In this document: piece by piece, positions 1 to 20,534 of the stretch
How the letters are laid out: the number at the start of each line of letters is the position of its first letter
How positions within the stretch are numbered: position 1 is the first letter of the stretch
Translations under genes and position numbers: made by a program
Assembly (NCBI GenBank): GCA_003213955.1
Contig: QCMG01000011.1
Location: forward strand, 1 to 56,656
DNA: 56,656 bases
DNA from: Prochlorococcus sp. AG-418-M08
GTDB taxonomy: Bacteria; Cyanobacteriota; Cyanobacteriia; PCC-6307; Cyanobiaceae
Reading direction: 5' to 3'
Notes under the pieces: model-generated
Seen by the model: only the letters and a program-made list of their open reading frames with translations
Database searches by the model: none
What the model was told of the DNA's origin: nothing

Positions 1-2384
1 TGATCTTTTTCAAAGCAAATCCTCTCATATTTTGATTGTATGGGTACACCTATGCCTATTTGATTGTCTTTATTAATTAGGGCTGGAGGGAGATATTTAA
101 TTTCAAATCTTTCATCTTCTTTTGGAGATATTCTTCCTCCTATTTCTTTAATTGCAGTAATGAAGAAATTCTTAACAAAGAAGGGTTGAATCCTTCTAGC
201 CATTGCTCTATCAATATCTTGTTTTAAACTTAGAACTTTTGTAGTATCAATATCTTGTTTAACTAATGCTCTTTCCTCTAAAAGTTCTTTTAAGTGATCT
301 GAGGAAATTGTTTCATCGATTCTTTCAAGTTTTTCTCTCACCTTTGGATCATCGTTATATCTTATAGCGTCAACTAAAAAATCTTTCAGAGATTTTCCGC
401 TAAATAATTTGCCGAGAACATCAAAAACTCGATCACCAAGGGCTTCTCTGGCGATCTCAAGTTTCTGCAAAAGCTGAATGTAAACGTCACCTTCTCTTGT
501 ATCTTTGGCTAATAAATTCCAAAGATGGCAAACTTCCTTTTGACCAATCCTATGTATTCTTCCAAATCTTTGTTCCAATCTATTGGGATTCCAAGGTAAA
601 TCATAATTAACCATCAAATGTGCTCTTTGAAGATTAACCCCTTCTCCTGCAGCATCGTTTGCTAAAAGTATCACAACATCAGGGTTGTTCATAAAGGCAT
701 TAACAACATCTCTCCTTTTATCTCTTGGAACTGAACCATGGATTTCCACAACTGATTCATCTCGACCTAATCTATTTTTTATTTTTTTTGATAGGTCAAA
801 TAACGTATCTTTAAATTCTGTAAAAATGACCAGTTTTCGTTGCGAACCTTTTGAGTCAACCATTAATGGATCATTTAAAATTCGATCCAGTTCGTTCCAT
901 TTTGCATCATTGTCAGCATGAACAACTCTTTTAGCCAAAATAGATAATTGATTTAAAGTCTCAATTTCAATTTCTAATTCGGCTAGAGTTTGGGCAGTTG
1001 TAGCATTATCCAAAAATTCATTTTCTTGTTCTTCAATATCATTTGCGTCTCCATCTTCATAAATATCTTCAATTTCTAAATCGCTTATATTTCTAATGTT
1101 CGGTTTGATTTTTAATTCTACGTTTGCGATTCTACCTTCTAAAAGCAGTTTTTCCTCTTTAAGTCTCGAAGTTAATTTATCTCTTCTTCTCTCAATTGAT
1201 TTAAATATTGCAAAAGGTGAGCTTGCTAATCTTCGTTGCAAGGTCATTAAAGCAAAACCAACATTCACTCTTCTTCTCCCACCTCCCTCTTGCTCAACAT
1301 TTCTTTCGGCTCTGTTCATTTCGTCTCTCACGTATTCCGTTACTCGTTCGTAAAGGATCTTTTCATTAGTAGTTAATTCGTATTGTGCTGTATAACTTTT
1401 TCTTTCAGGGAAGAGTTTTTTACCTTCAAATGTATAAAGATCTTCTTTTACTAGTCTTCTCATTAGATCTGTTGGGTCACTTCTATGAATAGAATCTCTT
1501 TGAATGCCTGCGAATCTATCTTCATCAAGTAATGACATGAATAATTGGAAATCATCTTCAATTCCGTTATGAGGCGTTGCTGTTAGCAGCAAAAGATTCC
1601 TTGTATGATTACCAATCCTTTTCCCAAGGTCATATCTTCTTGTGGTTCTAATTTCACCACTAAAATATTTAGCACTCATTCTATGGGATTCATCAATTAC
1701 AACTAGGTCATATTCTTGAGATTTGAGAATTCTTTCCTGAAGTTCTTCATTCCTTGATAACATATCCATCCTTGCGATAAGAAAAGATTTTTCATCAAAA
1801 GGATTCCCTAATCCAGTTGAATTAATTAAGTCTCTGGTAAGAAGATCAAATTGAAGATCAAATTTTTCCTTCAATTCGTCTTGCCATTGCTCTGTTAAAG
1901 AACCTGGCGCAACAATTAAACATCTTTCTAAATCCCCTCTAATAATTAGTTCCTTAATAAGTAAACCAGCCATTATTGTTTTCCCTGCTCCTGGGTCATC
2001 AGCCAATAGAAATCTCATTGGTTGTTGATTGAGCATATATTCGTACACGGCACTTATTTGATGAGGTAGAGGATCTATGTCACTACTGCTGATAGCAACG
2101 TATGGATCAAAAAGGTAAGCAAGTCGTATTCTTTCTGCTTCAAGAGCTAATTTAAATTTTTCACCATCTCCTTTAAAGCTCCATTTTCTTCCGCCACTTA
2201 TAAGCTCCAAATTAGATTCTTGATCTCTAAAAAGTAGTTGCTCGCTTGTATTACCTTCGCTATCTCTAACTATTACTTGACAACACTCTCCCATCATTCG
2301 TGTACTAATAATTTGTACAGTTTCTTTCCCCAATATTCCTTTAACTTGTGATTCTGGTTTTAAATTTTCAAGCTTTAAGACCAC
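1..2384 (-). CDS. SNF2/RapA-type helicase, DrmD-like (C-terminus cut by window edge)
   Basis: About 794 codons are visible and the 3' end lies outside the window. The start is GTG at 2384, because an in-frame TAA lies just upstream. Helicase motifs appear in order: Walker A DDPGAGKT (about residues 129-136), motif II DESH (about 231), TATPHNG, FTEFKDT, EIHGSVPRDKR, and the final block ending FGRIHRIGQ. This is an ATP-driven double-stranded DNA translocase of the SNF2/RapA class. The layout and N-terminal region resemble DrmD, the SNF2 helicase of class 1 DISARM anti-phage systems, but no other DISARM gene is visible, so a stand-alone helicase is equally possible. It lies downstream of the RepA-like gene on the same strand with about 110 bases between. 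The helicase class is secure; DrmD is inference. Confidence 0.85.
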   Translation of the reverse strand, partial: MVLKLENLKPESQVKGILGKETVQIISTRMMGECCQVIVRDSEGNTSEQLLFRDQESNLELISGGRKWSFKGDGEKFKLALEAERIRLAYLFDPYVAISSSDIDPLPHQISAVYEYMLNQQPMRFLLADDPGAGKTIMAGLLIKELIIRGDLERCLIVAPGSLTEQWQDELKEKFDLQFDLLTRDLINSTGLGNPFDEKSFLIARMDMLSRNEELQERILKSQEYDLVVIDESHRMSAKYFSGEIRTTRRYDLGKRIGNHTRNLLLLTATPHNGIEDDFQLFMSLLDEDRFAGIQRDSIHRSDPTDLMRRLVKEDLYTFEGKKLFPERKSYTAQYELTTNEKILYERVTEYVRDEMNRAERNVEQEGGGRRRVNVGFALMTLQRRLASSPFAIFKSIERRRDKLTSRLKEEKLLLEGRIANVELKIKPNIRNISDLEIEDIYEDGDANDIEEQENEFLDNATTAQTLAELEIEIETLNQLSILAKRVVHADNDAKWNELDRILNDPLMVDSKGSQRKLVIFTEFKDTLFDLSKKIKNRLGRDESVVEIHGSVPRDKRRDVVNAFMNNPDVVILLANDAAGEGVNLQRAHLMVNYDLPWNPNRLEQRFGRIHRIGQKEVCHLWNLLAKDTREGDVYIQLLQKLEIAREALGDRVFDVLGKLFSGKSLKDFLVDAIRYNDDPKVREKLERIDETISSDHLKELLEERALVKQDIDTTKVLSLKQDIDRAMARRIQPFFVKNFFITAIKEIGGRISPKEDERFEIKYLPPALINKDNQIGIGVPIQSKYERICFEKD

Positions 2385-2495: not shown

Positions 2496-3548
2496 TCAAG
2501 ATTTTTTGGAACCATACAAATGGATAGGGCGGCCGTTTTCTATTTTTTGATCTTCTCTTAATATCTTCTCTTCTGTAAATAAGTGTCTCAATATTCCTCG
2601 AGTATGTTGTTCACTAAATCCTATATTCTTTGAAATATTTTTTACATCTAGATAATCGTTTTTCTGTTTTAATAATTCTAGGATTCTAGAACGACATAAA
2701 TTTTCTTCTTTTGGTGATAACTGATTTTTACCAGAGGAGTGATAATACCATTTAAAAGTTTCTTGATCACCTTGAATATTTAGTAAAGAACCTTCGTCAC
2801 AATTTCTCCCCTTTAAGCAACTAAAAAGGAAGTGATCTTCAAAATTAGGTTTAATAGATTTATGAATACTCCAAATATCACTTGCTGCAGAATAGATTGA
2901 TTGATTTCCCATGACATCATGTTTATTTACATTTATCCTTTCGCCATGCTCTGGTTTTTTTAAGTGCGAAGAAAATATTATGGGAATATTTTTTTCGCTT
3001 GCTAAATCATTTAGTTTATAAAGAGGTAATGCAAATTCAGCATCCTTATATGAATATTTACCGCCGGTTAGAAGAGTTGTAATGGAATCTAAAAAAACTA
3101 CATCACAATAATTTCCTATTAATTCACTCAACTTTTGAATATTTAATTTATCAAAACCTCCATCTTTAAATAAAAAATCAACATTATCTGACACTCCAAT
3201 TATTTTTATCTTATGAGCACAATTACTTCTTGATTCGTCAGCTTGAATAAATAAAACTCTCCCTTTTTTTGCAGAAAAAGTATTTAAGAATTTACTGCCT
3301 TCACCTATCGCAGATGCCATTGCATACATTAAAGATGTTTTACCGCTGGAGGATTCACCCGCAAGAAGTATCAGATTTTTCTTTTCAATAATTTTGTCAA
3401 TTATCCAATCTACTTTTTTGGTAATTAGTTTTAAATCTTTTGATGAAATAGGTTTTTGTACATTGTTAGATGGTGTCGATCCAATCTTAAATTTTTTATG
3501 CATTTGGTTCTCGTAATTATGATTTTGTAGCTTTTGTTTTTTTTTCAA
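2496..3548 (-). CDS. RepA-like RecA-fold (AAA_25) ATPase of an integrative element
   Basis: A 350-residue ATPase when read from a TTG codon. It has Walker A GESSSGKT (residues 64-71), Walker B VVFLDS (about 150-155), a sensor-like SSHLKKP near 195-201, and a C-terminal winged-helix-like segment (about 275-345). This matches the hexameric RepA/KaiC-like ATPases of plasmids, satellites and integrative elements, which act as replicative helicases or loaders. The TTG start is weak: an in-frame stop lies just upstream and no good ribosome site precedes it. The strong signal, GGAGG followed by ATG at 3579, is out of frame and reaches this frame only across a nine-A run at 3537-3545. It is the last gene of a three-gene operon with the excisionase-like and basic small proteins. 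ATPase assignment is firm; a replication role is inferred from context. Confidence 0.8.
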   Translation of the reverse strand: MKKKQKLQNHNYENQMHKKFKIGSTPSNNVQKPISSKDLKLITKKVDWIIDKIIEKKNLILLAGESSSGKTSLMYAMASAIGEGSKFLNTFSAKKGRVLFIQADESRSNCAHKIKIIGVSDNVDFLFKDGGFDKLNIQKLSELIGNYCDVVFLDSITTLLTGGKYSYKDAEFALPLYKLNDLASEKNIPIIFSSHLKKPEHGERINVNKHDVMGNQSIYSAASDIWSIHKSIKPNFEDHFLFSCLKGRNCDEGSLLNIQGDQETFKWYYHSSGKNQLSPKEENLCRSRILELLKQKNDYLDVKNISKNIGFSEQHTRGILRHLFTEEKILREDQKIENGRPIHLYGSKKS

Positions 3549-3590
3549 TGTCTACGTAGCCGAAGTCTTCTAATGTCATTTCGTAACCTC
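3537..3590 (-). other. Out-of-frame coupled start plus A9 slippery run ahead of the RepA-like frame
   Basis: On the minus strand a GGAGG box is followed at ideal spacing by ATG at 3579-3577, which overlaps the TGA of the upstream gene as ATGA, a typical translational-coupling junction. That frame reads about 14 codons into nine consecutive A residues (3545-3537) and ends at a stop soon after. The ATPase frame is entered from it by skipping one A (+1), or from a transcript or template with eight A residues. Polymerase slippage at such runs is a known way to make two products. A homopolymer sequencing error or strain-specific phase variation would look identical. Confidence 0.6.
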
Positions 3591-3833
3591 CTTTTTTAAT
3601 TCACTTATTATTTGTTCACCTTGCCTTATAAGACGACCTCGGTAATGAAACTCTTTAAGGATTTCAGAGACATTCCAAAGGATGCTGGAATTGATATTTG
3701 CTCCAAAAATATAATGTTTTTCTTCGATTAAAAAACCATTTTTTATATCACGATTCTTCTTGAGAAATTGAGAACTAACTCCTAAATAAGCAGTAGCTTC
3801 TCTCGTTGGTAACCAACGTAAATCATTTTCCAT
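3576..3833 (-). CDS. Small excisionase-like helix-turn-helix protein
   Basis: An 85-residue protein. Near its N-terminus, WLPTREATAYLGVSSQFLKK reads as a MerR/excisionase-type winged helix, in which an L-P-T-R-E-A opening leads into a Y-L-G-V turn. An LWNVSEILKEF stretch and a basic C-terminus follow. A strong AGGAGG lies just before the ATG. Such small HTH proteins in integrative elements act as recombination directionality factors or as regulators. It sits between the basic small protein and the RepA-like ATPase, and its stop codon overlaps the next ATG. It lies more than 3 kb from the integrase, so a role in excision is inference. Without a search it could also simply be an operon repressor. 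Confidence 0.65.
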   Translation of the reverse strand: MENDLRWLPTREATAYLGVSSQFLKKNRDIKNGFLIEEKHYIFGANINSSILWNVSEILKEFHYRGRLIRQGEQIISELKKEVTK

Positions 3834-3860
3834 TTTGAAACTCCTCCTGAGTTTAAGAAA

Positions 3861-4076
3861 TTATTTCTTAGCTTTCTTTTCTTTCTCTTTTTCAAGCTCA
3901 CTAACGGCAGCCTTAACACTCGAAGGTAACTTTTCCGCATGAGGATTAAATTTGTTAGCTTTTGGTGCGGTACCATTTGCTTTATTCCTCATTACAAATT
4001 CAGCACTAGGAATCAAAGAATCTTCACGCTTTCCTTTGGGTACTCGAAATCTACGATTATTAATTTTGACTGTCAT
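3861..4076 (-). CDS. Small basic protein of unknown function, first gene of the RepA-like operon
   Basis: A 71-residue, strongly basic protein. It has an N-terminal segment with NNRRFRVPKGKR and ends in a charged helix of alternating lysine and glutamate. No domain is recognised. The composition suggests a soluble nucleic-acid-associated protein. It starts with ATG and is followed after 27 bases by the excisionase-like gene on the same strand, so it is probably the leader gene of the three-gene operon. The inverted repeat at 4131-4146 lies in its upstream region. Coding status rests on operon context and clean spacing. Confidence 0.55.
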   Translation of the reverse strand: MTVKINNRRFRVPKGKREDSLIPSAEFVMRNKANGTAPKANKFNPHAEKLPSSVKAAVSELEKEKEKKAKK

Positions 4077-4130
4077 AGTGTCGCCTCAAGAGAGTTAGAA
4101 TATGCGACTTGTAAATCCTTAAAACTTACA

Positions 4131-4146
4131 TTCAGGTGAGCCTGAA
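4131..4146. promoter_or_regulatory. Inverted repeat TTCAGG-N4-CCTGAA upstream of the RepA-like operon
   Basis: A perfect 6-base inverted repeat with a four-base spacer lies about 55-70 bases upstream of the ATG at 4076. The position fits an operator for a dimeric repressor of the operon. No cognate regulator is identified, and no convincing -35/-10 pair was found beside it. Confidence 0.4.
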
Positions 4147-4189
4147 CCCAATGGACAGGGGCGTGCCTTAGAGTTGTTAATTTTATTAT

Positions 4190-4213
4190 ATAGATGTATT
4201 TAAATACGTCTAT
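4190..4213. repeat. 24-base near-perfect palindrome centred on ATTTAAAT
   Basis: Two 12-base arms (ATAGATGTATTT and its complement) match except for one T/G pair. The palindrome lies between the end of the secreted-protein gene at 4220 and the inverted repeat at 4131-4146. It could be a terminator stem, a protein-binding site or a recombination or replication site. It has no loop and no T-run, which argues against a simple terminator. Confidence 0.45.
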
Positions 4214-4219
4214 AAATAT

Positions 4220-5308
4220 TTATTTATTCAATTCATTCAAAGCCAAATTTTTATTATTAAACTTTTTTAAAGGTACTAAAAATTCCTTTTTATTTTTGTC
4301 TTCAAAAATCCCAAAAATATAATATCCTCCCAACCATCCAATAGTCCCTCCTGATTGATAACCAATCCTAATCAAATAAGAATCATTACATTGAGATAGT
4401 TGTTTTGCTAATTTATTGCACTTGGATAAATCTACTCTTTTAAGCACTTCATAATGAGATTTATAACGATTATGATTCTCTTTATCTTTAATATCATTTT
4501 GTTGATAAATAACATTTTCGACCAGAACTAATTCATTCATTGTTTCTTCATTTTTTACAAAACCATTTTCTAAGTTCCATTTAAAACAGTCATTTAAATT
4601 AATAGAAACAGAGTAAACATTATCTTTAGATATTTTAGATTTAATTTCATAACCCAAAGGAATAGTTTTACCAATATATACTCCTGGACTATATTCAAAT
4701 TTTGTTTTATTTTTAATCCCAAATTCTTCTGTAAATAAATCTACTTTTGGTTTCTCAAAATATCCAAATGTAGCAAAACATGTCGGAGGAATAATTCCTT
4801 TGTTTGTCTCCCAACCAATAAGATTTTTATTATCAAATTGTTCTTGATTTACTCCATTTATTGATTTAATAGTCCAATTTCCACTTTCCATTCTGTCAAA
4901 CCAGATTAGACCATGAGAAATCATGAATCCTCTCCATCCAATAGAATCACAATCTATTTCAGTATTGATAACTTTATTAACCCATTTTTTAGGGAAGATT
5001 TGATCAAAACTTTTATTCTTTATAAATTCTCTCCTTGGACCATTTTGAAGTTCATCAATTAGAACATTTTTATAAATTCCTTGAATATCTTTTTTTGCTA
5101 TAAGAGTTTGAATCTTTCTCCCAAAATCATGAGCTTCCTGTCTGTCATAGTAGTCATAATTTTGTTTCTTTTTTAATAAAGAACAATCTTTTCTCCTTGG
5201 TATTTGACTTTCAGAATTTGCTGCAAGTGGCACCGTAAAAATTATCAATAAGGCTATTATTAATTTCTTAAAAGAGAACTCTGATCGGAACTTATCTTTC
5301 TGAACCAT
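4220..5308 (-). CDS. Secreted or membrane-anchored protein of unknown function
   Basis: A 362-residue protein. After a basic N-terminus (residues 1-14) a hydrophobic segment around residues 15-31 ends in an A-A-N-S-E region, a plausible signal peptide or signal anchor. The mature part is rich in aromatic, lysine and asparagine residues, with scattered cysteines that could form disulfides. No known domain is recognised. Its ATG lies inside the 3' end of the upstream gene (17-base overlap), so the two are co-translated and probably cooperate in the cell envelope. It is cargo of the island and unlikely to be core, given its position between integrase and RepA-like operon. Confidence 0.65.
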   Translation of the reverse strand: MVQKDKFRSEFSFKKLIIALLIIFTVPLAANSESQIPRRKDCSLLKKKQNYDYYDRQEAHDFGRKIQTLIAKKDIQGIYKNVLIDELQNGPRREFIKNKSFDQIFPKKWVNKVINTEIDCDSIGWRGFMISHGLIWFDRMESGNWTIKSINGVNQEQFDNKNLIGWETNKGIIPPTCFATFGYFEKPKVDLFTEEFGIKNKTKFEYSPGVYIGKTIPLGYEIKSKISKDNVYSVSINLNDCFKWNLENGFVKNEETMNELVLVENVIYQQNDIKDKENHNRYKSHYEVLKRVDLSKCNKLAKQLSQCNDSYLIRIGYQSGGTIGWLGGYYIFGIFEDKNKKEFLVPLKKFNNKNLALNELNK

Positions 5309-5753
5309 TTACCCAGCCATTTGATCTACATTTACCAGAATTGTTGATGTCATAGCTATCGCACCAATAGCTATTTAAAGCAAATATGACATTGCTTTTA
5401 ATTTTTTTTGCCCCGCCTGAAACTGGCAAATAATGTATACCTTTTTTTGAATTTAATGTTTCTGAACAAAAGAAATCAGGACCGCACATTGCGTATGCTA
5501 TACCCTCCTCATTTAAATAAAGAATTGCTCCTGACCCAGTATTTCTCCAATAAGGTATTCCTGGAAATCCATTCTCTTTTGCTTTTTGATGGTGGCGAGC
5601 AACTCTTGTTTGATTTGATTCAAAAACATATTTCCACTCAAATTTTGGGAGATTTACAAAAAGAACCCAAAAAATTATCGGTCCATATATAGCTCCAACC
5701 CAAGCCCAAAGGCCATACCTTTTGCTATTTTTTATTTTTTGATTATTAGGCAT
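5292..5753 (-). CDS. Single-pass membrane protein of unknown function
   Basis: A 153-residue protein with a basic N-terminus and one clear transmembrane segment (about residues 13-33, GLWAWVGAIYGPIIFWVLFV). A roughly 120-residue outward domain follows, with four cysteines (CGPDFFC, then WCDS and KCRS) that may pair. The PYWRNTGSG and FALNSYWC stretches resemble secreted pilin-like or periplasmic proteins, but no family is recognised. It overlaps the next gene by 17 bases, indicating a two-gene unit. N-terminal topology suggests an anchor with the remainder in the periplasm or thylakoid lumen. A pilin-like role is only one speculative reading. Confidence 0.6.
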   Translation of the reverse strand: MPNNQKIKNSKRYGLWAWVGAIYGPIIFWVLFVNLPKFEWKYVFESNQTRVARHHQKAKENGFPGIPYWRNTGSGAILYLNEEGIAYAMCGPDFFCSETLNSKKGIHYLPVSGGAKKIKSNVIFALNSYWCDSYDINNSGKCRSNGWVNGSER

Positions 5754-5761
5754 CGCTGTAT

Positions 5762-5968
5762 TTAATTTTTTTGTTTGAATAAATTTTGAATAACGTATAC
5801 ATCTTTTGCTTCAGGATATTTTTGCTGGAAAATTTTTACAGCACTATTAGGGGACAGCGCAAAGAGATTTGTTTTTATTCTGTATTCTTCTACCAATCCA
5901 GAAACTAAAAAACTTTTCAAAACCAACCAATGTTTTCCTCTAATTTTATATTGCTTGTCAACTTTAAT
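5762..5968 (-). CDS. Short coding-like frame without a normal start; possible remnant gene
   Basis: A frame of up to 68 codons ends at TAA (5764-5762). It reads like protein: basic start, a KHWLVLKSFLVSG segment, then ALSPNSAVKIFQQKYPEAKD and VIQNLFKQKN. An in-frame TAA lies just upstream of an ATT codon at 5968, and there is no ATG or GTG. The first usable initiator is TTG at 5926, giving 54 residues. It lies just upstream of the membrane-protein gene on the same strand. Either it is a small gene with a TTG or ATT start, or the 5' end of an eroded gene is missing. The rest of the 331-base gap (5969-6084) shows only AT-rich sequence that may hold the promoter of the rightward gene. Confidence 0.4.
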   Translation of the reverse strand: MKVDKQYKIRGKHWLVLKSFLVSGLVEEYRIKTNLFALSPNSAVKIFQQKYPEAKDVYVIQNLFKQKN

Positions 5969-6084
5969 TTCTTATAGACACAAACAATTATTGTAATTTT
6001 GTTTTTATTTCTAATAAAAAATACACAAAACCAATACTAAGGATTATTTTATGTTCCAAGATAAAAAATAAAATTTATTATTCG

Positions 6085-7236
6085 ATGATGGATTTTGATT
6101 TTAATTTCAAACCCAGTGATTATTACGATGGAGATATTCAAAAGGAAATTTTAGAATCCCCAAATGATCTTGATGAGTTTGCAGAGAACGGAGTTACTAT
6201 TGCAGGAATTTATTTTGGCGACGGTCCCTATAATCCAACATTAGCCCATCTAGTTGCTCGTTTTTTTAATGGAAAATATCATTACAAATTAATAGAAGAT
6301 GATTTTGAGAATGTATATAAGTTGAAGCATTTCGAGAGTAATGAACCACTAACTTTAAAGCAGGTTATTGAAAATATTGATACGGCAATATTAACCAATT
6401 CTGATGAGACAGACTATGAAGAATTACCTTTAGGAGTAATGGAGTCCCAGTTGATGAGAAGATTTAGTTGTAATGAAGAGAAAGAAGAAATACTGAGATC
6501 TTTTGAAATTTATTCTAAGTTTTATCCTTTAGAAGAATATTATTCTGTGCAAAAAGAAATTTGGTTAAAGCATCTTATTTGTGATGATAAAGATGAGAAG
6601 AACAAAAAAATTGATGATGCTAAGAGATTATTATTTAATGATTTTATAGAAAAACAAATTAATGATTTTGAGAAAAAGCAATCATGGGCAGAGCCAGGTA
6701 TCTATAAAAAACTGGTTAAATCTAAAGATGAAGAAAATACTATTCTCACTAAAATTTCTAACGGGGAGTCTAAAACCTGCGAATTTAAAGAGTCTTTAAG
6801 TTTAGATGTTCGCCAATCTGAAAATAATAAGTCATATGTCCCAAAAAAAGAGGAAAAAATTGAATTGTCAGTGCTAAAAACTATTGCTGGATTCCTAAAC
6901 TCAGATGGAGGTGAATTGTTTATTGGTGTAAATGATGAATCAATAATTTGTGGGATTGAAAATGAATTGAAAAGATTTCATAAATCCTCAAAGGATAAAA
7001 TGCAATTACATTTAAAAAGTTTAATCAAGCAAAATATTGGTTTAGGTTCAAGTAATTACATTAATTTAGAATTGAAAAAAGTTAATGATAAAGCGATAAT
7101 CCATGTAATATGCAAGAAGTCAGATGAACCAGTTTATATTAAGGATAAAGATTTTTATATTAGAACCGGACCTGCTACAGATAAGTTAGAGGGTCGGGAA
7201 TTAGTAAACTATACAACTAGTAGATTTAAGAATTAA
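6085..7236 (+). CDS. Schlafen/AlbA_2-domain protein, candidate defence or regulatory cargo
   Basis: A 383-residue protein in two parts. Residues 1 to about 225 are acidic and match no family I recognise. From about 228 an AlbA_2 (Schlafen-like, divergent AAA) domain follows: CEFKESLSL at 232, then LKTIAGFLNSDGGELFIGVN (about 264-283), and VKV-like strands ending with YIKDKDFYIRTGPAT near 355-370. AlbA_2 domains bind nucleic acid or nucleotide and occur in transcription regulators and many anti-phage proteins. It is the only rightward gene in the island, set between the secreted-protein pair and the integrase operon, with its own promoter implied. Two ATG codons (6085, 6088) stand in tandem. 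Domain call is solid; a defence role is inference. Confidence 0.75.
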   Translation: MMDFDFNFKPSDYYDGDIQKEILESPNDLDEFAENGVTIAGIYFGDGPYNPTLAHLVARFFNGKYHYKLIEDDFENVYKLKHFESNEPLTLKQVIENIDTAILTNSDETDYEELPLGVMESQLMRRFSCNEEKEEILRSFEIYSKFYPLEEYYSVQKEIWLKHLICDDKDEKNKKIDDAKRLLFNDFIEKQINDFEKKQSWAEPGIYKKLVKSKDEENTILTKISNGESKTCEFKESLSLDVRQSENNKSYVPKKEEKIELSVLKTIAGFLNSDGGELFIGVNDESIICGIENELKRFHKSSKDKMQLHLKSLIKQNIGLGSSNYINLELKKVNDKAIIHVICKKSDEPVYIKDKDFYIRTGPATDKLEGRELVNYTTSRFKN

Positions 7237-7339
7237 TATTTAACTTTATTTCATTGCTCATAACATATTTATTAATATTTTTCTAAGTGTCTTAAATAAA
7301 GGATTAAATTAGTTTTTTAAATTGTTTTTAAAAATTATT

Positions 7340-7624
7340 TTAATCTTTAGGCCATTGATGAGGAACTAAACCACCAAGAGCCGCCCTATTTCTTGGGGTG
7401 TCTTTGAAAAATGCCGCATCACAATTACGACAGCCCCAGGTCCTATCAATTGGAAAATCTGGAATGCAGCCAATTAAATAAATATTGTCATTATTAAAGT
7501 CCTCTTCTGTTGGATAACCTAAAACAGCTTTTCTAACTTCTTTTTTTTTACATCTAGGGCAAATAGTTGGTTTCCTGTCAGTAATAAACCAATCTTCTCT
7601 CTCTGGTATTGGATTGCAGTTCAT
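7340..7624 (-). CDS. Small zinc-ribbon protein translationally linked to the integrase
   Basis: A 94-residue protein with two cysteine pairs, CPRC (about residues 22-25) and CRNC (about 66-69). These flank a conserved-looking core, VRKAVLGYPTEEDF, then LIGC and the tryptophan in RTWGC. The pattern fits a widespread family of small uncharacterised zinc-ribbon proteins that carry a G-Y-P-T-E-E-type motif and an L-x-G-C turn. The ATG follows the integrase stop codon by two bases, with a GAGG ribosome site lying in the integrase 3' end. The pair is therefore one operon, and the product may assist recombination or element regulation. No function is known to me. Confidence 0.7.
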   Translation of the reverse strand: MNCNPIPEREDWFITDRKPTICPRCKKKEVRKAVLGYPTEEDFNNDNIYLIGCIPDFPIDRTWGCRNCDAAFFKDTPRNRAALGGLVPHQWPKD

Positions 7625-7626
7625 AA

Positions 7627-8976
7627 TTAAACCTCAATTCTGTTTTCTAAATGTCTTTCAAATGCTTTCTCTAAACTAAGTTCTGTTGTGTAAGAACCAT
7701 AAAACGAATTATGAGTTTCTACAGAATGACCCATTGCAGCAGCAGCATCTTTTACTGATATTGGGATTGTGGATCCCTTATGACATTGATGCGCATACCT
7801 ATGTCTCAAGCTATAAGGAGTTATTTCAGGGTTAGTTTTTATTATTTCTTTCCAAACCTTATTTCTTTCAATTAATTGCCTTAGTGATTGCCCAACATCA
7901 CCATATTTATTTTTATCTTTTACCATTTCTATTTGATTTAGGACTGGTATCGGTAAGGTAATCTTTTTTGATTCGAATAGTTCTATAAGGTTTTGGCCGA
8001 GGTTTTTCCTCGCCAAAAGGTCCATAGGAAAAACTCTTCTATCTTCCTTTTTTGCTTTAGTGTTTATATTATTTTTGATATTACCAACATACAGTTTGCC
8101 ATCTACTGCTCTAAGAACTGCAAGTTCAGAGAGCCTTAAGCCAAAAATAGAAATTAAACCAACCGCGAGAAATAATGAAGAATCTCTTGATTCAAGATCA
8201 TCTAATAATTTAAGTAAATCATTCTCCTCGATATATGGAGTTAATTTATCTTGCTTAGTTCTATTAGATTTTCCAATTAGTTCTTTTCTATAGGCTTGAC
8301 TTGGCGGTTGCCATCTTTTTTCGTTCTGTGAATGTCTTTCGATTCCATATTTTAAAATCTCACACCAAGCATTTATATATCTTTTCCTCTCATCAGGTTC
8401 GATATCAATAAGATATTTATCCGATAATTTCTTTATAAGCTCAACTCCTGTATTTGGTGAGGGATTATTATTCATTTCTTCTAAAAATCTACTAATCCTC
8501 CTAGCCCAATCTTTTTCAGTTTTACTTGTTAAACCTCGTTTGGTTTGCATGAACTGATCAACCTTTGATGCAGCATTTAAATATGCTTTTAAATCCTTTT
8601 CATAGTTAGCATCATTTTTATTAAGAGGCCTTATTAATAAGAAATCATTCCAACTTTTATTAGGTTGTTTCGTTGCCTCTCCAATGAATTGAGCTTTCCA
8701 TCTTCTTGTGGCTTCTTTAAGAGTAAGGTTTTTTTCAACTACTAATGGTTTTATAAATTCGATAGCCTTTAGGATCTCTATCCCTGATGTTTTCTTCCAT
8801 TCGATGGGTAAGGTTTGAGAGGTTCTTTTGTTGGCAGAACCTAGCCCTTCGTTGTAAACATATAAAAGTTTTGTTCTACCGCTATTTTCGCCATTAACCC
8901 TAATTCCACGACCAAAATTAGTGCAGATATTTTTTCTTAATTCTTTTTCCCAAGAAGTGCTGTTAGCACTAGTCAT
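7627..8976 (-). CDS. Tyrosine recombinase (phage-type integrase) at tRNA-Thr
   Basis: A 449-residue integrase. A SAM-like core-binding region occupies roughly residues 120-225 and the catalytic domain about 245-445. Catalytic residues visible are Arg281 in FGLRLSEL, the second Arg391 in YSLRH, His417 in AMGH, and the nucleophile Tyr426 in NSFYGSY. The usual His of the HxxR box is Tyr388, a replacement I believe is tolerated in some cyanobacterial integrases. It cuts and rejoins DNA at attachment sites to insert or excise the element. Its ATG lies about 130 bases from the 3' end of tRNA-Thr and it reads away from it, the standard layout at an attachment tRNA. The gene is intact, so the element may be mobile. 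Confidence 0.9.
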   Translation of the reverse strand: MTSANSTSWEKELRKNICTNFGRGIRVNGENSGRTKLLYVYNEGLGSANKRTSQTLPIEWKKTSGIEILKAIEFIKPLVVEKNLTLKEATRRWKAQFIGEATKQPNKSWNDFLLIRPLNKNDANYEKDLKAYLNAASKVDQFMQTKRGLTSKTEKDWARRISRFLEEMNNNPSPNTGVELIKKLSDKYLIDIEPDERKRYINAWCEILKYGIERHSQNEKRWQPPSQAYRKELIGKSNRTKQDKLTPYIEENDLLKLLDDLESRDSSLFLAVGLISIFGLRLSELAVLRAVDGKLYVGNIKNNINTKAKKEDRRVFPMDLLARKNLGQNLIELFESKKITLPIPVLNQIEMVKDKNKYGDVGQSLRQLIERNKVWKEIIKTNPEITPYSLRHRYAHQCHKGSTIPISVKDAAAAMGHSVETHNSFYGSYTTELSLEKAFERHLENRIEV

Positions 8977-9009
8977 TTTAAAAGTGTAATTAGTGCAAAT
9001 ATTAGTGCA
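8917..9009. repeat. Cluster of ATTAGTGCA repeats around the integrase start
   Basis: The 9-mer ATTAGTGCA occurs three times in the same orientation, at 8917-8925, 8989-8997 and 9001-9009. An inverted AGTGC/GCACT pair lies at 8956-8970. All lie within 95 bases spanning the integrase start and its upstream region. Such iterons are typical of integrase arm-binding sites or of an autoregulatory operator. Confidence 0.5.
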
Positions 9010-9028
9010 GAATTGCTATATTGTCGAC

Positions 9029-9040
9029 ATATCTAGATAT
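9029..9040. repeat. Palindrome ATATCTAGATAT between integrase and tRNA-Thr
   Basis: A perfect 12-base palindrome, followed by an overlapping smaller one (AGATATATCT), lies between the iteron cluster and the tRNA-Thr 3' end. The position fits part of an attachment region or an integrase/excisionase binding site. No crossover core is assigned. Confidence 0.35.
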
Positions 9041-9104
9041 ATCTGGCTATTAGTCAATCTTAGTTTATTTCTTATAACTTCTTTTGTAGCAATGCTTTTG
9101 CTCA

Positions 9105-9176
<72 letters not shown>

Positions 9177-9802: not shown

Positions 9803-9816
9803 TTAAAATTTGGCAA

Positions 9817-10425
9817 ATGATAGTTGATTTTAAAAGGCCTTCTTTCCATATTAAATATTTATCTTCACTCACCTCAAACAAGTGGATACGACTTGCCTTG
9901 TCTAATCCGATAGATATGCTTATTGACCATGCTCATTGTGAAAGAAAAGCTGCAGGAGTCGCAATACAATTAATGTTTAGATATCCATCTGAACCAGATT
10001 TAGCAGAAGTGTTGAGTCCAATAGCAAGAGAAGAGTTAGAGCATTTTGAGAAAATCCTTTACTTTTTAAAAGATCTTGGCCATTCGCTTAAAGCTTTACA
10101 TCCGCCCCCATATGGAGCTGAGTTGTCCAAGAGTATAAGAAAGGATGAACCTAATAGAATGTTAGATAGTTTTCTAATAGCAGGACTTATAGAAGCGAGA
10201 AGTCATGAAAGATTAAGTTTACTTGCATTGAACTCTGAAAAGGAATCTTTCAAGCTCCTTTATAATTCTTTACTTGAAAGTGAAGCAAGGCATTTTGGCA
10301 TTTATTGGAAATTAGCTCAGAGTAAATACTCTAAAAATGATACCTTCAAAAGATTAGAGGAATTATCTAAAATTGAGTCGAAAATCATATCTAAGACTTT
10401 CTCTATGCCGAGGGTTCATAGTTAA
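9817..10425 (+). CDS. miaE: tRNA 2-methylthio-N6-isopentenyladenosine hydroxylase
   Basis: A 202-residue ferritin-like diiron oxygenase that hydroxylates the isopentenyl group of ms2i6A at tRNA position 37. The iron-binding glutamates and histidines lie in HAHCERKAA (about residue 38), REELEHFE (about 70), EARSHERL (about 128) and ESEARHFG (about 155), four helices in the order expected. Length is normal. It follows aroQ by 14 bases and precedes cobI by 20 on the same strand, suggesting shared transcription but no metabolic link. Confidence 0.93.
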   Translation: MIVDFKRPSFHIKYLSSLTSNKWIRLALSNPIDMLIDHAHCERKAAGVAIQLMFRYPSEPDLAEVLSPIAREELEHFEKILYFLKDLGHSLKALHPPPYGAELSKSIRKDEPNRMLDSFLIAGLIEARSHERLSLLALNSEKESFKLLYNSLLESEARHFGIYWKLAQSKYSKNDTFKRLEELSKIESKIISKTFSMPRVHS

Positions 10426-10445
10426 ATAAATAGTCGAATTTACTT

Positions 10446-11198
10446 ATGAATATTAAAAAGATTTTAAAAAAATTAATTAGTTCTAAAAGTGATTTGACAA
10501 CCTTATCGATTGTTGGGGTTGGTCCTGGAGATCCTTCTCTTTTAACAATCTCTGCAATAAATGCAATTAAAAAGGCAGAAGTTATAGTTTTCCCAATTTC
10601 AAGTGATGAAAAAAAAAGTATTGCAGCGGAGATAGTTAAAGAATATATCAGATTTAAGAAAAAAATTCCTATCATCTTTCCCATGGCAAGAAAGGAATAT
10701 GATCCTGATGAGATATGGTCAAATGCCGTAAATATAATTTTGAAATTTTTGAAAAATGAAGAATCAGTTGCTTTAATTTGCCTTGGAGATACTTCCCTTT
10801 TTGCAAGCTCTTCAAATATTTTAAGAATAATAAAAAATAATCATCCAGAAATCATTACAAAAACCATACCAGGTGTATCTTCAATATCAGCAGCAGCAGC
10901 ATTAAGTAATTTTGATTTAGCTAAAAAAGGTGAGACTTTAATAATCCAAGAATGCCCCTCTTCAAAATTAGAATTATTAGATTTAATCGATCTAAACAAA
11001 AATAATAGAAATGTTTTGGTATTAATGAAAGTCGGGAATAGATGGGTTTGGGTAAAAGATGTTTTGAAGAAAGAAGAAATCTTAGATAAGTCTTTGTTGG
11101 CTATAAACGTAGGAATGAATAGTCAATTTGTAGAAAATGCATCAAAGTATAATAATGATATAGTTCCTTATTTATCAATAATATTAATACGGTTCTAA
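10446..11198 (+). CDS. cobI: Precorrin-2 C20-methyltransferase
   Basis: A 250-residue SAM-dependent tetrapyrrole methylase of the CobI/CbiL type, adding the C20 methyl group in cobalamin corrin-ring synthesis. The family opening is seen at about residues 20-32 (IVGVGPGDPSLLT), followed by CLGDTSLFASS near 110 and a PGVSSISAAAA stretch near 140, which shape the SAM and substrate sites. Marine picocyanobacteria make a B12-like cofactor (pseudocobalamin), so retention is expected. It is followed after four bases by the DUF1823 gene. Confidence 0.9.
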   Translation: MNIKKILKKLISSKSDLTTLSIVGVGPGDPSLLTISAINAIKKAEVIVFPISSDEKKSIAAEIVKEYIRFKKKIPIIFPMARKEYDPDEIWSNAVNIILKFLKNEESVALICLGDTSLFASSSNILRIIKNNHPEIITKTIPGVSSISAAAALSNFDLAKKGETLIIQECPSSKLELLDLIDLNKNNRNVLVLMKVGNRWVWVKDVLKKEEILDKSLLAINVGMNSQFVENASKYNNDIVPYLSIILIRF

Positions 11199-11202
11199 TT
11201 TA

Positions 11203-11691
11203 ATGAAAGAAAAAAATAAAGTTTTATCTTCAAAAGATTTTTCCTGGCCATTAAGTAAAAAACTCCTTTGCTCAATTCTTAATGATCAAGTTAGTGATGT
11301 ATTTGTTTGTGAATTGATTTGGGAGAGACTTTTTTATACTAAAGATAAATCAAGTGAATATTGGATAATAAGTGACTATACACCTCACTATTGGTCAGAA
11401 AAATATAATAATGCTCCACAAATAATTTCAGATAGAGGTGCATCGATTCATCTGACACGTTCTATACCTAAGGAGCATAAACAAAATTTAAAAAAAATCC
11501 TTGATTTTAAAGGTTATAAGATCAACGAACTATATCCAAGGAGAACAAGAAGAGCAACTGCAGTTAATTGGTTAATTTTTTGGGGAATAGAATCTAATGC
11601 TACTTTGAAAGTTCATGATAAGTTACCAATATTATCCTCTCCTCCTTTTAACCCAATACATGGACACAATGGAGATCCTGAAATCAAATAA
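11203..11691 (+). CDS. DUF1823 family protein (cyanobacterial, unknown function)
   Basis: A 162-residue soluble protein of a family I recognise as cyanobacterial. The core contains the family stretches YWIISDYTPHYWSEKY (about residues 56-71) and LYPRRTRRATAVNWLIFW (about 107-124), then a proline-rich tail. No catalytic motif is evident. It is tightly coupled to cobI (four-base gap), and 70 bases separate it from der. No function is proposed. Confidence 0.8.
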   Translation: MKEKNKVLSSKDFSWPLSKKLLCSILNDQVSDVFVCELIWERLFYTKDKSSEYWIISDYTPHYWSEKYNNAPQIISDRGASIHLTRSIPKEHKQNLKKILDFKGYKINELYPRRTRRATAVNWLIFWGIESNATLKVHDKLPILSSPPFNPIHGHNGDPEIK

Positions 11692-11761
11692 ATTTTCTTG
11701 TTTAGAGTAAAAGATCTTATTGAAGGTATAGTTGTATTAGATCTATTTTTTAAGGAGCATA

Positions 11762-13138
11762 TTGACTCTTCCATCAATAGCAATAATCGGAAGACCTAAT
11801 GTTGGGAAGTCTACTTTGGTTAATAGGTTATGCCAAAGTAATGATGCCATTGTATTTGATAAACCTGGAGTTACTAGAGATAGAACTTATCAAAATGCTT
11901 CTTGGGGCGGGAGGCAATTTCAAGTTGTTGATACGGGAGGTCTAGTGTTCGAAGATGATAGTGAATTTCTTCCTGAGATTCGTACTCAAGTTTTTTTAGC
12001 ATTAGAAGAGGCTTCTCTTGCTTTATTTGTGGTTGATGGAAATCAAGGAGTAACTGAAGGAGATTTATCGATAGCAAAATGGTTGAGAAATTCAGCTTGT
12101 AAAACAATTGTTGCAGTAAATAAATGTGAATCTATATCTTTAGGGATTTCTATGGCTTCTGAATTCTGGAAATTAGGATTAGGTGAACCTTTTCCTGTAT
12201 CTGCTATTCATGGCTCTGGAACGGGAGATCTTTTAGATCTTGTCATTGATGAACTTCCTGACGATTTAAATAATGAGGATAAAGAAGATAAAATAATGAT
12301 GTCTATTATTGGAAGACCAAATGTTGGCAAATCTAGTTTGCTAAATGCTATATGCGGAGAAAAAAGATCAATAGTTAGTGCAATAAGTGGTACTACAACT
12401 GATTCAATAGATACTCTAATCAAGAAAGATTCCCATCTTTGGAAAATAGTTGATACTGCTGGAATAAGAAGAAAAAAAAATGTAAAATATGGAACAGAAT
12501 TTCTTGGGATCAATAGAGCTTTTAAATCTATTGATAGAAGCGATGTTTGTGTCTTAGTTTTAGATGCTATAGACGGTGTGACTGATCAAGATCAAAAATT
12601 AGCTGGGCGAATACAAGAGCAAGGTAGAGCATGTGTAATTGTTGTGAACAAATGGGATCTTGTAGAGAAAAATAATTCCACAATCTATCAGGTAGAGAAA
12701 GAACTTAGATCAAAATTATATTTTTTGCATTGGTCCAAAATGATTTTCATATCAGCTTTGACTGGACAAAGAGTTGAAAATATTTTTGAGCATGCTTTTA
12801 ATGCTGTAACTCAGCATAGAATGAGAGTTACAACATCAGTTGTTAATGAAGTACTCAAGGAGGCTCTTGGATGGAAAAGTCCACCAAGTAAGAGAAGTGG
12901 GAAACAAGGAAGAATTTACTATGGTACTCAAGTGAAAAACCAGCCACCAACTTTTACTCTTTTTGTAAATGACCCTAAATTATTTGGAATAACTTATAGA
13001 AGATATATTGAAAGGCAAATCAGATTAAATCTTGGGTTTGAAGGCTCTCCAATAATTTTACTTTGGAGAGGGAAGCAGCAAAGAGACCTAGAAAAGGAGA
13101 CATCAAAAAAAAATATTAATATTATTCAAAAAGATTAA
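11762..13138 (+). CDS. der: Ribosome-assembly GTPase Der (EngA)
   Basis: A 458-residue GTPase with two G domains, needed for 50S subunit maturation. First domain: GRPNVGKST near residue 9, then DTGG and NKCE. Second domain: GRPNVGKSS near 184, DTAG and NKWD. A KH-like C-terminal domain (about 350-440) follows. The start is TTG at 11762, placed correctly behind AAGGAG. The stop overlaps the ATG of the EcfT gene by one base (TAATG), so the two are translationally coupled. Confidence 0.97.
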
Positions 13139-14052
13139 TGAATATTCTTACTAAATTTTCTATTGGACAATATGTTGATGGTAATAGAAGTTGGTTGAGG
13201 CTTGTCGATAGTAGATTAAAGATAATTTCATTATTAATTTTTCTAATTACTCCAATCTGGGCAGGTCCATTGTGGAGATTAAGTTTAGTTATTTGTTTGT
13301 TATGCATTACTGTTCTAAGTTTGTTACCATCAAGGATTTGGTGGCGGTCACTAGTCTTTCTTCTAGGATTGTCATTATTAGTTGGATTTCTATCTTTAAT
13401 AGCCTCTTCTGATATTCAATCTCTTGATAGCCCTGTAAGAGATCCTAATGAATTGAATTTAATTTTAGAAAGTCAGGAAAAATGGAATATTTTAGAAATT
13501 CCATCTATGAAAATCGGTTTTATAACTCTTGGCCCTTACAACTTATCAAGGAAAGCTTTTGAATTAGGAATAAAAACCTCAACTTTAATTTTCACTGTGA
13601 TTCATAGTGTGAATTTGATGCTTCTAACAACAATGCAAGAGGATTTGGTTTGGGCATTAAGTTGGTTTATGCATCCTTTGAGAAAAGTTGGACTACCCAT
13701 TGATAAATGGCTTTTTCAATTACTATTAGCATTGCGTTTTATTCCTTTAGTTCAGGAAGAATTACAAAATATACTCAAATCAGTATCAGTAAGATCAATA
13801 AATTTAAGGAGTTTAGGGTTCAAGAAATCTATTAATGTTTTACTAACGATGTTTGAACGACTATTCCTAAATATATTCTTAAGAATTGAACAAGGCGCTG
13901 ATTCATTACTTTCAAAAAAAAATATCCTTATAAAAACTTATAGATTTAAAACTTTTAAAAAAAACAATTATCTAAATTTTATTTTTAATTCATTATCGAT
14001 TTGTTTTATTTTCATAGCAATTTTTCTTAGAAAACAGTATGGTGCATTATAA
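13138..14052 (+). CDS. Energy-coupling factor transporter transmembrane protein EcfT (CbiQ family)
   Basis: A 304-residue membrane protein with several hydrophobic helices and the EcfT/CbiQ-type loop region around LRFIPLVQEELQNI and RSINLRSLG, where two Arg-rich short motifs contact the ATPases. EcfT couples ATP hydrolysis in the EcfA pair to vitamin- or metal-binding S components in the cytoplasmic membrane. No EcfA or S component lies nearby, which is usual for unlinked ECF modules. The one-base overlap with der is conserved in this group as far as I recall. The substrate is unknown. Confidence 0.85.
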   Translation: MNILTKFSIGQYVDGNRSWLRLVDSRLKIISLLIFLITPIWAGPLWRLSLVICLLCITVLSLLPSRIWWRSLVFLLGLSLLVGFLSLIASSDIQSLDSPVRDPNELNLILESQEKWNILEIPSMKIGFITLGPYNLSRKAFELGIKTSTLIFTVIHSVNLMLLTTMQEDLVWALSWFMHPLRKVGLPIDKWLFQLLLALRFIPLVQEELQNILKSVSVRSINLRSLGFKKSINVLLTMFERLFLNIFLRIEQGADSLLSKKNILIKTYRFKTFKKNNYLNFIFNSLSICFIFIAIFLRKQYGAL

Positions 14053-14070
14053 ATAACATAATATTTAAGT

Positions 14071-14337
14071 TTGAGTTCAGAGCGTTATTTAAATCATCCA
14101 ACATTTGGAATGTTATATCAAGTTTCTCCAGGAATTGATGGAAAGGATATTTATGCGACTTTATACGCACAAAAAATGTTCTTTTTAGTAGAAATTAAAC
14201 AAAGAGAAGTTTTTTTTGAAGTTATACCCTACTTAGATGCTCGAAATCAGTCCGAATTAAACTTGCAAAGATCTAGAAGAGAAGGCTCAGAAGATTTTTC
14301 AAAATGGGAACACTTATTTAGACAAACCTTTTTATAA
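14071..14337 (+). CDS. pipX: PII-interacting protein PipX
   Basis: An 88-residue protein with the PipX core: YLNHPTFGMLYQV near the start, LYATLYAQKMFFLV (about 31-44), FEVIPYLDAR (about 49-58), and a C-terminal helix with RSRREGSEDF. PipX is a Tudor-like coactivator that binds NtcA when 2-oxoglutarate is high and is sequestered by PII when nitrogen is plentiful. The start is TTG. It lies three bases before the yggS/PipY gene, the usual bicistronic arrangement in cyanobacteria. Confidence 0.95.
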   Translation: MSSERYLNHPTFGMLYQVSPGIDGKDIYATLYAQKMFFLVEIKQREVFFEVIPYLDARNQSELNLQRSRREGSEDFSKWEHLFRQTFL

Positions 14338-14340
14338 AAT

Positions 14341-14979: not shown

Positions 14980-15138
14980 TCACTAATTGATTGTAATTTT
15001 ATGAAAATCTTGTCTTTAAACTTGCGATTAAGTATAACTAACGTTATCTAAGTATAGGTAGTTTATTCATTACTAAAAGATGGATTTATTACTTAAGGTT
15101 TTTTGGCCTTAGTTATTAATTTCTAGAGGATTTAAAAG

Positions 15139-15714: not shown

Positions 15715-15721
15715 TTAATCT

Positions 15722-17697: not shown

Positions 17698-17775
17698 TTA
17701 AACAACTATTTATAAAGTTAACAGTCAAAGTTACAAACAACGAAATCTTTTAATTAAGTAACATTTTAATATTTT

Positions 17776-19215: not shown

Positions 19216-19223
19216 TTTTTATA

Positions 19224-19808: not shown

Positions 19809-19852
19809 AACAAATCTAAAAATATTTACTTACTTTCTAAATCTACTTAAAT

Positions 19853-20503: not shown

Positions 20504-20534
20504 AAATTAAAATTTAAAAATCAATTTAATTAAT

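What the first reader, a model, noticed from the sequence alone, without database searches (positions are those of the whole stretch)
2496..9104. tRNA-Thr-anchored integrative element resembling a tycheposon
An intact tyrosine recombinase reads away from the 3' end of tRNA-Thr. It is followed by unknown cargo, an excisionase-like protein and a RepA-like ATPase. This matches the layout of tRNA-associated mobile elements described in Prochlorococcus. The left attachment site is not visible in the window.
Basis: partly seen in the sequence, partly recalled or inferred. Interest (0 to 1): 0.7.

Follow-up and report, generated by a model that had tools for sequence, protein, structure and literature searches.

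The report
Mobile island carrying exchangeable phage-defence genes
In a wild Prochlorococcus-type cell, a mobile DNA element sits in a threonine tRNA gene with its own cut-and-paste enzyme and part of an anti-phage system; related elements keep the same kind of mobility parts but carry other defence or nutrient genes, which shows one way this streamlined ocean microbe trades genes.

Summary
In detail: an intact 449-aa tyrosine recombinase starts 128 nt downstream of tRNA-Thr(GGT), followed by passenger genes, an excisionase-like protein and a RepA-like ATPase. The element does not end at 2496. It continues into HmaA, cut by the contig start; contig C22 of the same genome carries an HmaA tail and HmaB, so the cargo includes most of an Hma-type defence system.

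Relatives supply what the window lacks. Nine two-ended elements (6.8-31.3 kb) run from a full tRNA-Thr to a copy of its last 46 nt. In three (G140, G029, G083), DNA beyond that copy matches, for about 1.5 kb at 90-93%, the DNA right after tRNA-Thr in G128 and G141, where no such recombinase was found. Polymorphisms place the crossover in the anticodon stem-loop. Tandem 9-mers, probably integrase arm sites, lie at near-constant distances from both ends. Similar chassis flank unrelated cargo: DISARM, BREX, Druantia-like, phosphate or phosphonate genes.

It works like, and is probably, a tycheposon; clade membership of the recombinase could not be tested. A far-end helical protein may be a small terminase (weak evidence). 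The window's RepA-like gene is shifted by +1 relative to three relatives. Ordinary in kind, interesting in detail.

The parts
9105..9176 (-). tRNA-Thr(GGT), host gene and attachment site, intact at the integrase end
   Evidence: ARAGORN; the same 72 nt follows tRNA-Tyr in most relatives fetched
9105..9150 (-). 46-nt 3' part of tRNA-Thr that is duplicated at the far end of related elements
9132..9149 (-). interval of the crossover (tRNA nt 28-45, anticodon stem-loop), mapped in relatives G078, G089 and G148
9001..9009 (-). putative integrase arm site 1, TGCACTAAT
8989..8997 (-). putative integrase arm site 2, TGCACTAAT, 12-bp period
7627..8976 (-). tyrosine recombinase (integrase), 449 aa, pairwise dN/dS 0.04-0.07 among four elements
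7340..7624 (-). small zinc-ribbon-like protein directly behind int (in G089 and G046 its ATG overlaps the int stop)
   Evidence: (weak, below Pfam cut-off)
6085..7236 (+). Schlafen/AlbA_2 domain protein, 383 aa, optional passenger
   Evidence: E 2.6e-17; its cluster is present in G127 and G078, not in G029, G140, G148 or L147
5292..5753 (-). unknown 153-aa protein, next to the AlbA_2 gene in G127 and G078 too
4220..5308 (-). unknown 362-aa protein, next to the AlbA_2 gene in G127 and G078 too
3861..4076 (-). 71-aa ORF shared with G127, G078 and G029 (selection not shown: dN/dS 0.43-1.20 among the window, G127 and G078)
3576..3833 (-). excisionase-like winged-helix protein, 85 aa
   Evidence: dN/dS 0.07-0.16
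2496..3548 (-). RepA/AAA_25-like replication ATPase; +1 shift in an A9 tract compared with three relatives
3..2384 (-). HmaA helicase (residues 1-794), cargo, cut by the contig start; an HmaA tail and HmaB lie on contig C22 (L013)

Best explanation
The region is the integrase end of an integrative element inserted in tRNA-Thr(GGT) by its own tyrosine recombinase. Shown in relatives: the element lies between the intact tRNA and a copy of its 3' 46 nt, and the exchange lies in the anticodon stem-loop, so the tRNA is completed by the element's 3' half. Inferred: the integrase binds tandem 9-mer arm sites at both ends, the excisionase-like protein turns the reaction to excision, and the RepA-like ATPase replicates the circle. 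Cargo sits between this left chassis and a short right chassis (helical, DNA-binding-like protein plus arm sites) and is exchanged as a block. In the window the cargo is an Hma-type anti-phage system of which HmaA and HmaB are seen. It works like a tycheposon and is probably one. Whether the copy in the window is still mobile is open.
For: Two-ended elements: 9 of 15 near-full-length relatives, own included; in the other 6 the contig ends first. Flank match: after the far 46-mer, G140, G029 and G083 align over 1494-1505 nt at 90-93% with the DNA right after tRNA-Thr in G128 and G141. The 46-mer (3 mismatches allowed) is present twice or more in 26 of 151 genomes, control 0. Crossover between tRNA nt 28 and 45 from A27/T27 (G078, G089) and variants from nt 46 on (G089, G148). 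Tandem 9-mers: integrase side in 9 of 9 two-ended elements (first repeat at +95 or +107; G046's tRNA end was taken one base late), far side at -88 in 9 of 9 and -76 in 8 of 9; background 1 tandem pair in 297,576 nt counted over both strands. Int DNA blocks 85-96% identical in 11 pairs compared; among the window, G127, G078 and G029 homology ends within 20 nt of the rep stop; far module 92-94% between G140 and G029, G078, G148. Cargo: Hma, DISARM in G127 and, by likeness to it, L147, DruE-like plus type IIG in G029, BREX in G078, phosphonate ABC in G111 and PhoR-like, PBP-type, MFS and GAPDH genes in G083. Pairwise dN/dS below 0.2 for int, xis, rep in four elements.
Against: In the window's own genome the far att copy is absent within 3 mismatches and no intact far-end protein was found, only a match with 3 stops on C3 and a weak one on C1. 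HmaC was not found. The rep gene is shifted by one base. No excised circle or transfer can be shown from assemblies. The chassis is not constant: no gene clusters with the excisionase-like one in G083 and G089, none with the RepA- or VapE-like ones in G089, G111 and G036 (for G111 the part of the element in the first two pieces fetched; G036's contig is short); the rep of G140, G148 and G147 is only 40-41% identical to the window's, and G127's far module only 70-71% to those of G140, G029 and G078. Of nine far flanks, G127, G148 and G111 do not match G128/G141, and G078 and G089 gave no match under the filter. The arm-site motif was derived from the ends on which it was counted. The link of C22 to C11 rests on complementary HmaA parts, with about 68 profile positions missing between them.
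Confidence: 0.87

Rival explanations
1. The element is a phage satellite: its far-end helical protein is a small terminase that directs packaging into helper-phage capsids, and the Hma-type cargo protects the host and hence the element. This narrows the best explanation rather than contradicting it.
For: A 107-133 aa protein (27-96% identical to that of G029) lies 113-1159 bp inside the far att copy in 9 of 9 two-ended elements, and a 121-aa relative in the reversed element L142. The model (pLDDT 84.8, pTM 0.52) is all helical; small terminases of G20c/P74-26 rank 2, 3 and 8 by VIA (Z 6.4, 6.0, 5.6; 94-98 aligned; rmsd about 9); the best viral matches are an uncharacterised phage protein and a putative DNA-binding protein (E 5e-4 and 9e-4), with four 'Terminase small subunit' entries among the 50 rows shown (E 0.45-1.2). 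Gene order int - xis-like - rep resembles int - alpA - prim of PICMIs (PMC10803314, passages read). A VapE-like gene in G083 and a primase in L142 stand in for RepA.
Against: No significant PDB match (best E 1.4); Z values at this level are common for helical models (note). At the sequence level phrog_34910 of unknown function is the best match. No relative in IMG/VR by pattern or in GenBank phages. The protein is not seen as an intact gene in the window's genome.
Confidence: 0.35
2. The copy in the window is a stranded, no longer mobile remnant that is kept for its defence cargo.
For: The +1 shift in the rep gene, no far att copy in the assembly, a related genome (G015) with the int cut to a 72-aa ORF.
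Against: Int and xis-like ORFs are open, with low pairwise dN/dS against relatives; arm sites and att core are present; the shift lies in a homopolymer and could be a sequencing error or be bypassed by the downstream TTG start.
Confidence: 0.2
3. An ordinary genomic island built by homologous recombination, with the integrase as an old bystander.
For: The islands are mosaic; the zinc-ribbon gene of the window differs strongly from that of G127 although the neighbouring int is nearly the same (dN 0.57 against 0.01).
Against: Flank match from the first base, 46-nt duplicate and near-constant arm-site spacing in relatives.
Confidence: 0.04

Closest known systems
Tycheposons (Prochlorococcus; Hackl et al. 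2023, recalled, not held; secondary description in PMC10872708, passages read)
   Same: Prochlorococcus-type host, insertion at a tRNA gene, own tyrosine recombinase only weakly related to library families, kilobases to tens of kb, cargo including nutrient genes.
   Different: Could not check that the recombinase falls in the tycheposon clade. The cargo in the window is an Hma-type defence system; whether defence cargo on tycheposons has been reported could not be read.
PICMI and PICI phage satellites (PMC10803314, passages read)
   Same: int, an AlpA/Xis-like winged-helix protein and a replication gene in that order; a small gene directly behind int, in two relatives overlapping its stop as iolg does in PICMI.
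   Different: Larger, cargo-rich, tRNA-Thr rather than fis site, RepA-like ATPase instead of primase in the window; packaging unproven.
Hma candidate defence system (PMC8565338, passages read)
   Same: HmaA (1110 bits, residues 3-794) and HmaB (1226 bits) in operon order across the two contigs.
   Different: HmaC not found in this assembly; HmaA and HmaB are split over two contigs.
Mycobacteriophage integration at tRNA anticodon loops with paired arm-type sites (PMC10865867, passages read)
   Same: Core in the anticodon loop region, paired arm-type sites flanking the core.
   Different: Phage integrases of another host; relation of the recombinases not tested.

Membership tests
Tycheposon | Inserted at a tRNA gene with a duplicated tRNA 3' end | tested here: met
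   Met in 9 relatives with both ends and in L142; in the window's own genome only the tRNA end is assembled
Tycheposon | Encodes a tyrosine recombinase next to the tRNA | tested here: met
   15 of 15 near-full-length integrases of at least 58% identity
Tycheposon | Recombinase belongs to the deep-branching tycheposon clade (recalled) | not testable with these tools
   No reference sequences; paper not held. Weak library hits fit a divergent family but do not show it; another tRNA-linked picocyanobacterial family is distinct from tycheposons (PMC10187409, passages)
Tycheposon | Size 4-200 kb with cargo (PMC10872708, passages) | tested here: met
   Two-ended relatives 6.8-31.3 kb; cargo
Tycheposon | tRNA-Thr is one of the seven tycheposon tRNAs | not tested
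   The passages seen of the held secondary paper name only tRNA-Met
Tycheposon | Excision, circles or transfer observed | not testable with these tools
   Assemblies only
PICMI/PICI-type satellite | int, AlpA/Xis-like and replication gene together | tested here: met
   int, xis-like fold, AAA_25/RepA-like; no primase in the window; note the rep shift
PICMI/PICI-type satellite | Packaging interference gene such as a small terminase | tested here: inconclusive
   Far-end protein with weak structural likeness to small terminases; not seen intact in the window's genome
PICMI/PICI-type satellite | Dependence on a helper phage | not testable with these tools
   Needs infection experiments
Hma defence system | HmaA helicase | tested here: met
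Hma defence system | HmaB methylase | tested here: met
Hma defence system | HmaC ATPase | tested here: inconclusive
   No match in the 29-contig assembly, which breaks inside HmaB

The most novel reading that the evidence does not exclude
The tRNA-Thr elements are a standard delivery chassis (int, xis, rep at one end; arm sites and a small-terminase-like protein at the other) that is packaged by phages and carries exchangeable anti-phage systems, so that wild Prochlorococcus, whose genomes typically hold 0 to 1 restriction-modification systems, draws large defence systems from a mobile pool at one anticodon-loop site.
Probability: 0.3. Interest if true: 0.75.

Novelty: new member of a known kind. 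Interest (0 to 1): 0.5.

Why it matters
Prochlorococcus genomes were reported to typically carry 0 to 1 restriction-modification systems (PMC8262939, passages read). The elements found here put Hma, DISARM, BREX and Druantia-like systems, as well as phosphate and phosphonate genes, behind related recombinases at one tRNA gene, with ends and probable integrase sites defined closely enough for PCR, read-pair and biochemical tests. That makes the exchange of defence between cells at a single locus directly measurable in existing genomes and viromes.

Tried and rejected
Whole-genome search for a second tRNA-Thr end in the window's genome: none within 3 mismatches in 24 nt or in the 46-mer; the BLAST hits on C6 and C2 are tRNA-Ile and tRNA-Asn. 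Hunting the far end in 15 further stretches of that genome (C22, 12 other small contigs and two parts of C5): no tRNA-Thr-like end with up to 6 mismatches in 30 nt; C17 holds a phosphate/arsenate-type gene cluster like that in the G083 element and in G106; C19 and C21 hold genes that follow the site in relatives, so the left flank is fragmented. One marker (L080 gene) was not found in the genome, and a DNA marker from G010 gave scattered matches on C5. Viral collections: no relative of Int or of the far-end protein in IMG/VR by pattern or in GenBank phages. PDB by sequence profile gave nothing useful for the far-end and excisionase-like proteins, weak XerA for Int (E 0.036) and weak SRP and phage-helicase P-loop matches for the RepA-like ATPase. 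Small terminase was considered for the far-end protein and kept only as a possibility. The excisionase-like fold also resembles a PICI packaging-redirection entry (6hn7) and viral DNA-packaging motor entries (7lw0), so 'excisionase' is the likelier but not the only reading. A fixed ancestral island was rejected on the flank comparison. Literature: the listings for tycheposon and for Prochlorococcus with defence terms showed no paper on defence cargo of tycheposons; I saw listings and some passages only, in a library that lacks most subscription papers.
Full report
WHAT IS IN THE WINDOW. The window is the whole of contig C11 of a 1.66-Mb, 29-contig genome. tRNA-Thr(GGT) lies at 9105-9176(-). 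The tyrosine recombinase at 7627-8976(-) starts 128 nt past its 3' end and reads away from it. Behind it come a small zinc-ribbon-like gene, a Schlafen/AlbA_2 gene on the other strand, two unknown genes, a 71-aa ORF, an 85-aa excisionase-like gene and a RepA-like ATPase. The next gene, cut by the contig start, is HmaA of the Hma defence system (1110 bits). Contig C22 (3,571 bp) carries an HmaA tail and HmaB (1226 bits), cut at its own end; about 68 profile positions of HmaA are missing between the two contigs. HmaC was not found.

WHERE IT COMES FROM. Of 18 named loci with a relative of the recombinase, 16 are titled Prochlorococcus, one Pelagibacter (MED605) and one Synechococcaceae. That the 'AG-' names are single-cell genomes is recalled.

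ENDS OF THE ELEMENT. In a sample of 151 genomes of the genus (own included), 47 have a match to the recombinase at E 1e-10 or better; 8 near-full-length ones, own included, are at 91-100% identity. Of 15 near-full-length ones at 58% or more, all lie 116-141 nt behind a tRNA-Thr. Nine of them reach a far end: a copy of the last 46 nt of tRNA-Thr, 6.8 to 31.3 kb away; in the other 6, the window's genome among them, the contig ends first. Past the far copy, G140, G029 and G083 continue for about 1.5 kb at 90-93% identity with the DNA that follows tRNA-Thr directly in G128 and G141, where no recombinase of either family seen at this site lies in the next 20 kb; G046 matches them over 236-251 nt at 84%; G111 matches G060; G127 and G148 continue into what looks like the start of another element (matches of 137-139 and 43-50 nt); G078 and G089 gave no match under the filter. 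Over the sample the 46-mer (up to 3 mismatches) occurs at least once in 125 and at least twice in 26 of 151 genomes; the reversed control in none. Some of these second copies are whole tRNAs whose duplicate includes the end of tRNA-Tyr; in 6 of 8 such genomes fetched a 330-aa recombinase (cluster c17) follows the first tRNA.

CROSSOVER AND ARM SITES. In G078 and G089 the tRNA side has A at tRNA nt 27 and the far copy T; in G089 and G148 the two copies differ from nt 46 on. The exchange therefore lies between nt 28 and 45, the anticodon stem-loop (numbering of the 72-nt gene). A tandem 9-mer with 12-bp period lies on the integrase side of all nine (first repeat 95 nt past the tRNA in seven, G046 corrected by one base, and 107 in G089 and G111). 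On the far side a copy lies 88 nt before the 46-mer in all nine and a second at 76 in eight; G127's second copy departs from the motif. The fourth base is A at both ends in seven elements and T at both ends in two (G083, G046); the reversed element L142 shows T-type repeats on the integrase side, and on the far side by my reading of the sequence printed there. The same tandem occurs once in 297,576 nt of background counted over both strands. The motif was taken from these same ends. They are probably integrase arm sites; binding is not shown. In the window they are 9001-9009 and 8989-8997.

CHASSIS AND CARGO. Int DNA is 85-96% identical in the 11 pairs compared. Among the window, G127, G078 and G029 the homology ends within 20 nt of the rep stop; the rep of G140, G148 and G147 is a different allele (40-41% protein identity). 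The last 0.55 kb is 92-94% identical between G140 and G029, G078 and G148, but G127's is only 70-71%. Between the two modules lie unrelated genes: DISARM (G127; L147 in part, by likeness), a DruE-like helicase with a type IIG enzyme and a UvrD-type helicase (G029), BREX genes BrxB, BrxC, PglX and PglZ (G078), a shared cassette with WYL and helicase-like genes of unclear role (G140, G148), a phosphonate ABC transporter (G111; genes with the same starts in G036 and G037), PhoR-like kinase, PBP-type binding protein, MFS and GAPDH genes (G083), and an NMT1-type transport and FAD-enzyme set (G147). Rep is not constant: a VapE-like protein in G083, with a homologous gene in G046, a primase in L142, none clustering in G089, G111 and G036. 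No excisionase-like gene clusters in G083 and G089. Pairwise dN/dS in four elements is 0.04-0.07 for int, 0.07-0.16 for xis and 0.15-0.19 for rep.

FAR-END PROTEIN. All nine two-ended elements have a 107-133 aa protein 113-1159 bp inside the far copy (27-96% identical to the G029 protein). Its predicted structure is helical and resembles small terminases only weakly. In the window's genome only a match with 3 stops on C3 and a weak one on C1 were found.

MECHANISM. Shown in relatives: site-specific insertion at tRNA-Thr with exchange in the anticodon stem-loop, and different cargo blocks between similar ends. Inferred: arm binding, excision with the winged-helix protein, replication by the RepA-like ATPase, carriage in phage particles or vesicles. 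For the copy in the window: the insertion end is shown, the far end unseen, rep shifted by one base, so present mobility is open.

PLACE AMONG KNOWN SYSTEMS. The anatomy fits tycheposons as described second-hand in PMC10872708 (passages); Hackl et al. could not be read, and what I say of their clade and findings is recalled. A further tRNA-linked integrase family of picocyanobacteria, at tRNA-Phe and tRNA-Cys, is distinct from tycheposons (PMC10187409, passages), so tRNA linkage alone does not settle membership. Closeness to PICMI satellites rests on gene order (PMC10803314, passages). I file it as a probable new member of a known kind. Its special interest is the exchangeable defence cargo in a genus reported to typically hold 0 to 1 restriction-modification systems (PMC8262939, passages).

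Noticed in passing
window 3537-3545: A9 tract at the start of the RepA-like gene where G127, G078 and G029 have A8: +1 shift, error or real.
   Followed up: partly
L142 (AG-311-D23) 9806-21273: An 11.5-kb related element turned round: the integrase end lies at the partial tRNA copy and the small far-end protein at the full tRNA.
   Followed up: partly
L058-L060, L064-L067, L070, L071, L081, L082: Second tRNA-Thr copies with about 15 nt of the tRNA-Tyr 3' end attached; in 6 of 8 of these genomes a 330-aa recombinase follows the first tRNA. The element seems to carry a whole tRNA-Thr, sometimes decayed.
   Followed up: partly
window 8976-7627, residue 388: The recombinase family has Tyr where box II usually has His (YSLRH), invariant in 12 sequences (usual residue recalled).
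   Followed up: no
L054 (G147): Only one arm repeat is seen on the integrase side, apparently after a 12-bp deletion.
   Followed up: no
L122 (contig C17 of the window's genome): A phosphate/arsenate-type gene cluster, main proteins 94-98% identical to cargo of the G083 element or to genes behind tRNA-Thr in G106, with one gene at 48%.
   Followed up: partly
L110 (C3:31241-31408 of the window's genome): Match to the far-end protein with three stops, possibly a trace of an older element.
   Followed up: no
L141 (NZIO01000043.1): A contig labelled Pelagibacter MED605 carries this recombinase next to a tRNA-Thr 46-mer; possibly mis-binned cyanobacterial DNA.
   Followed up: no
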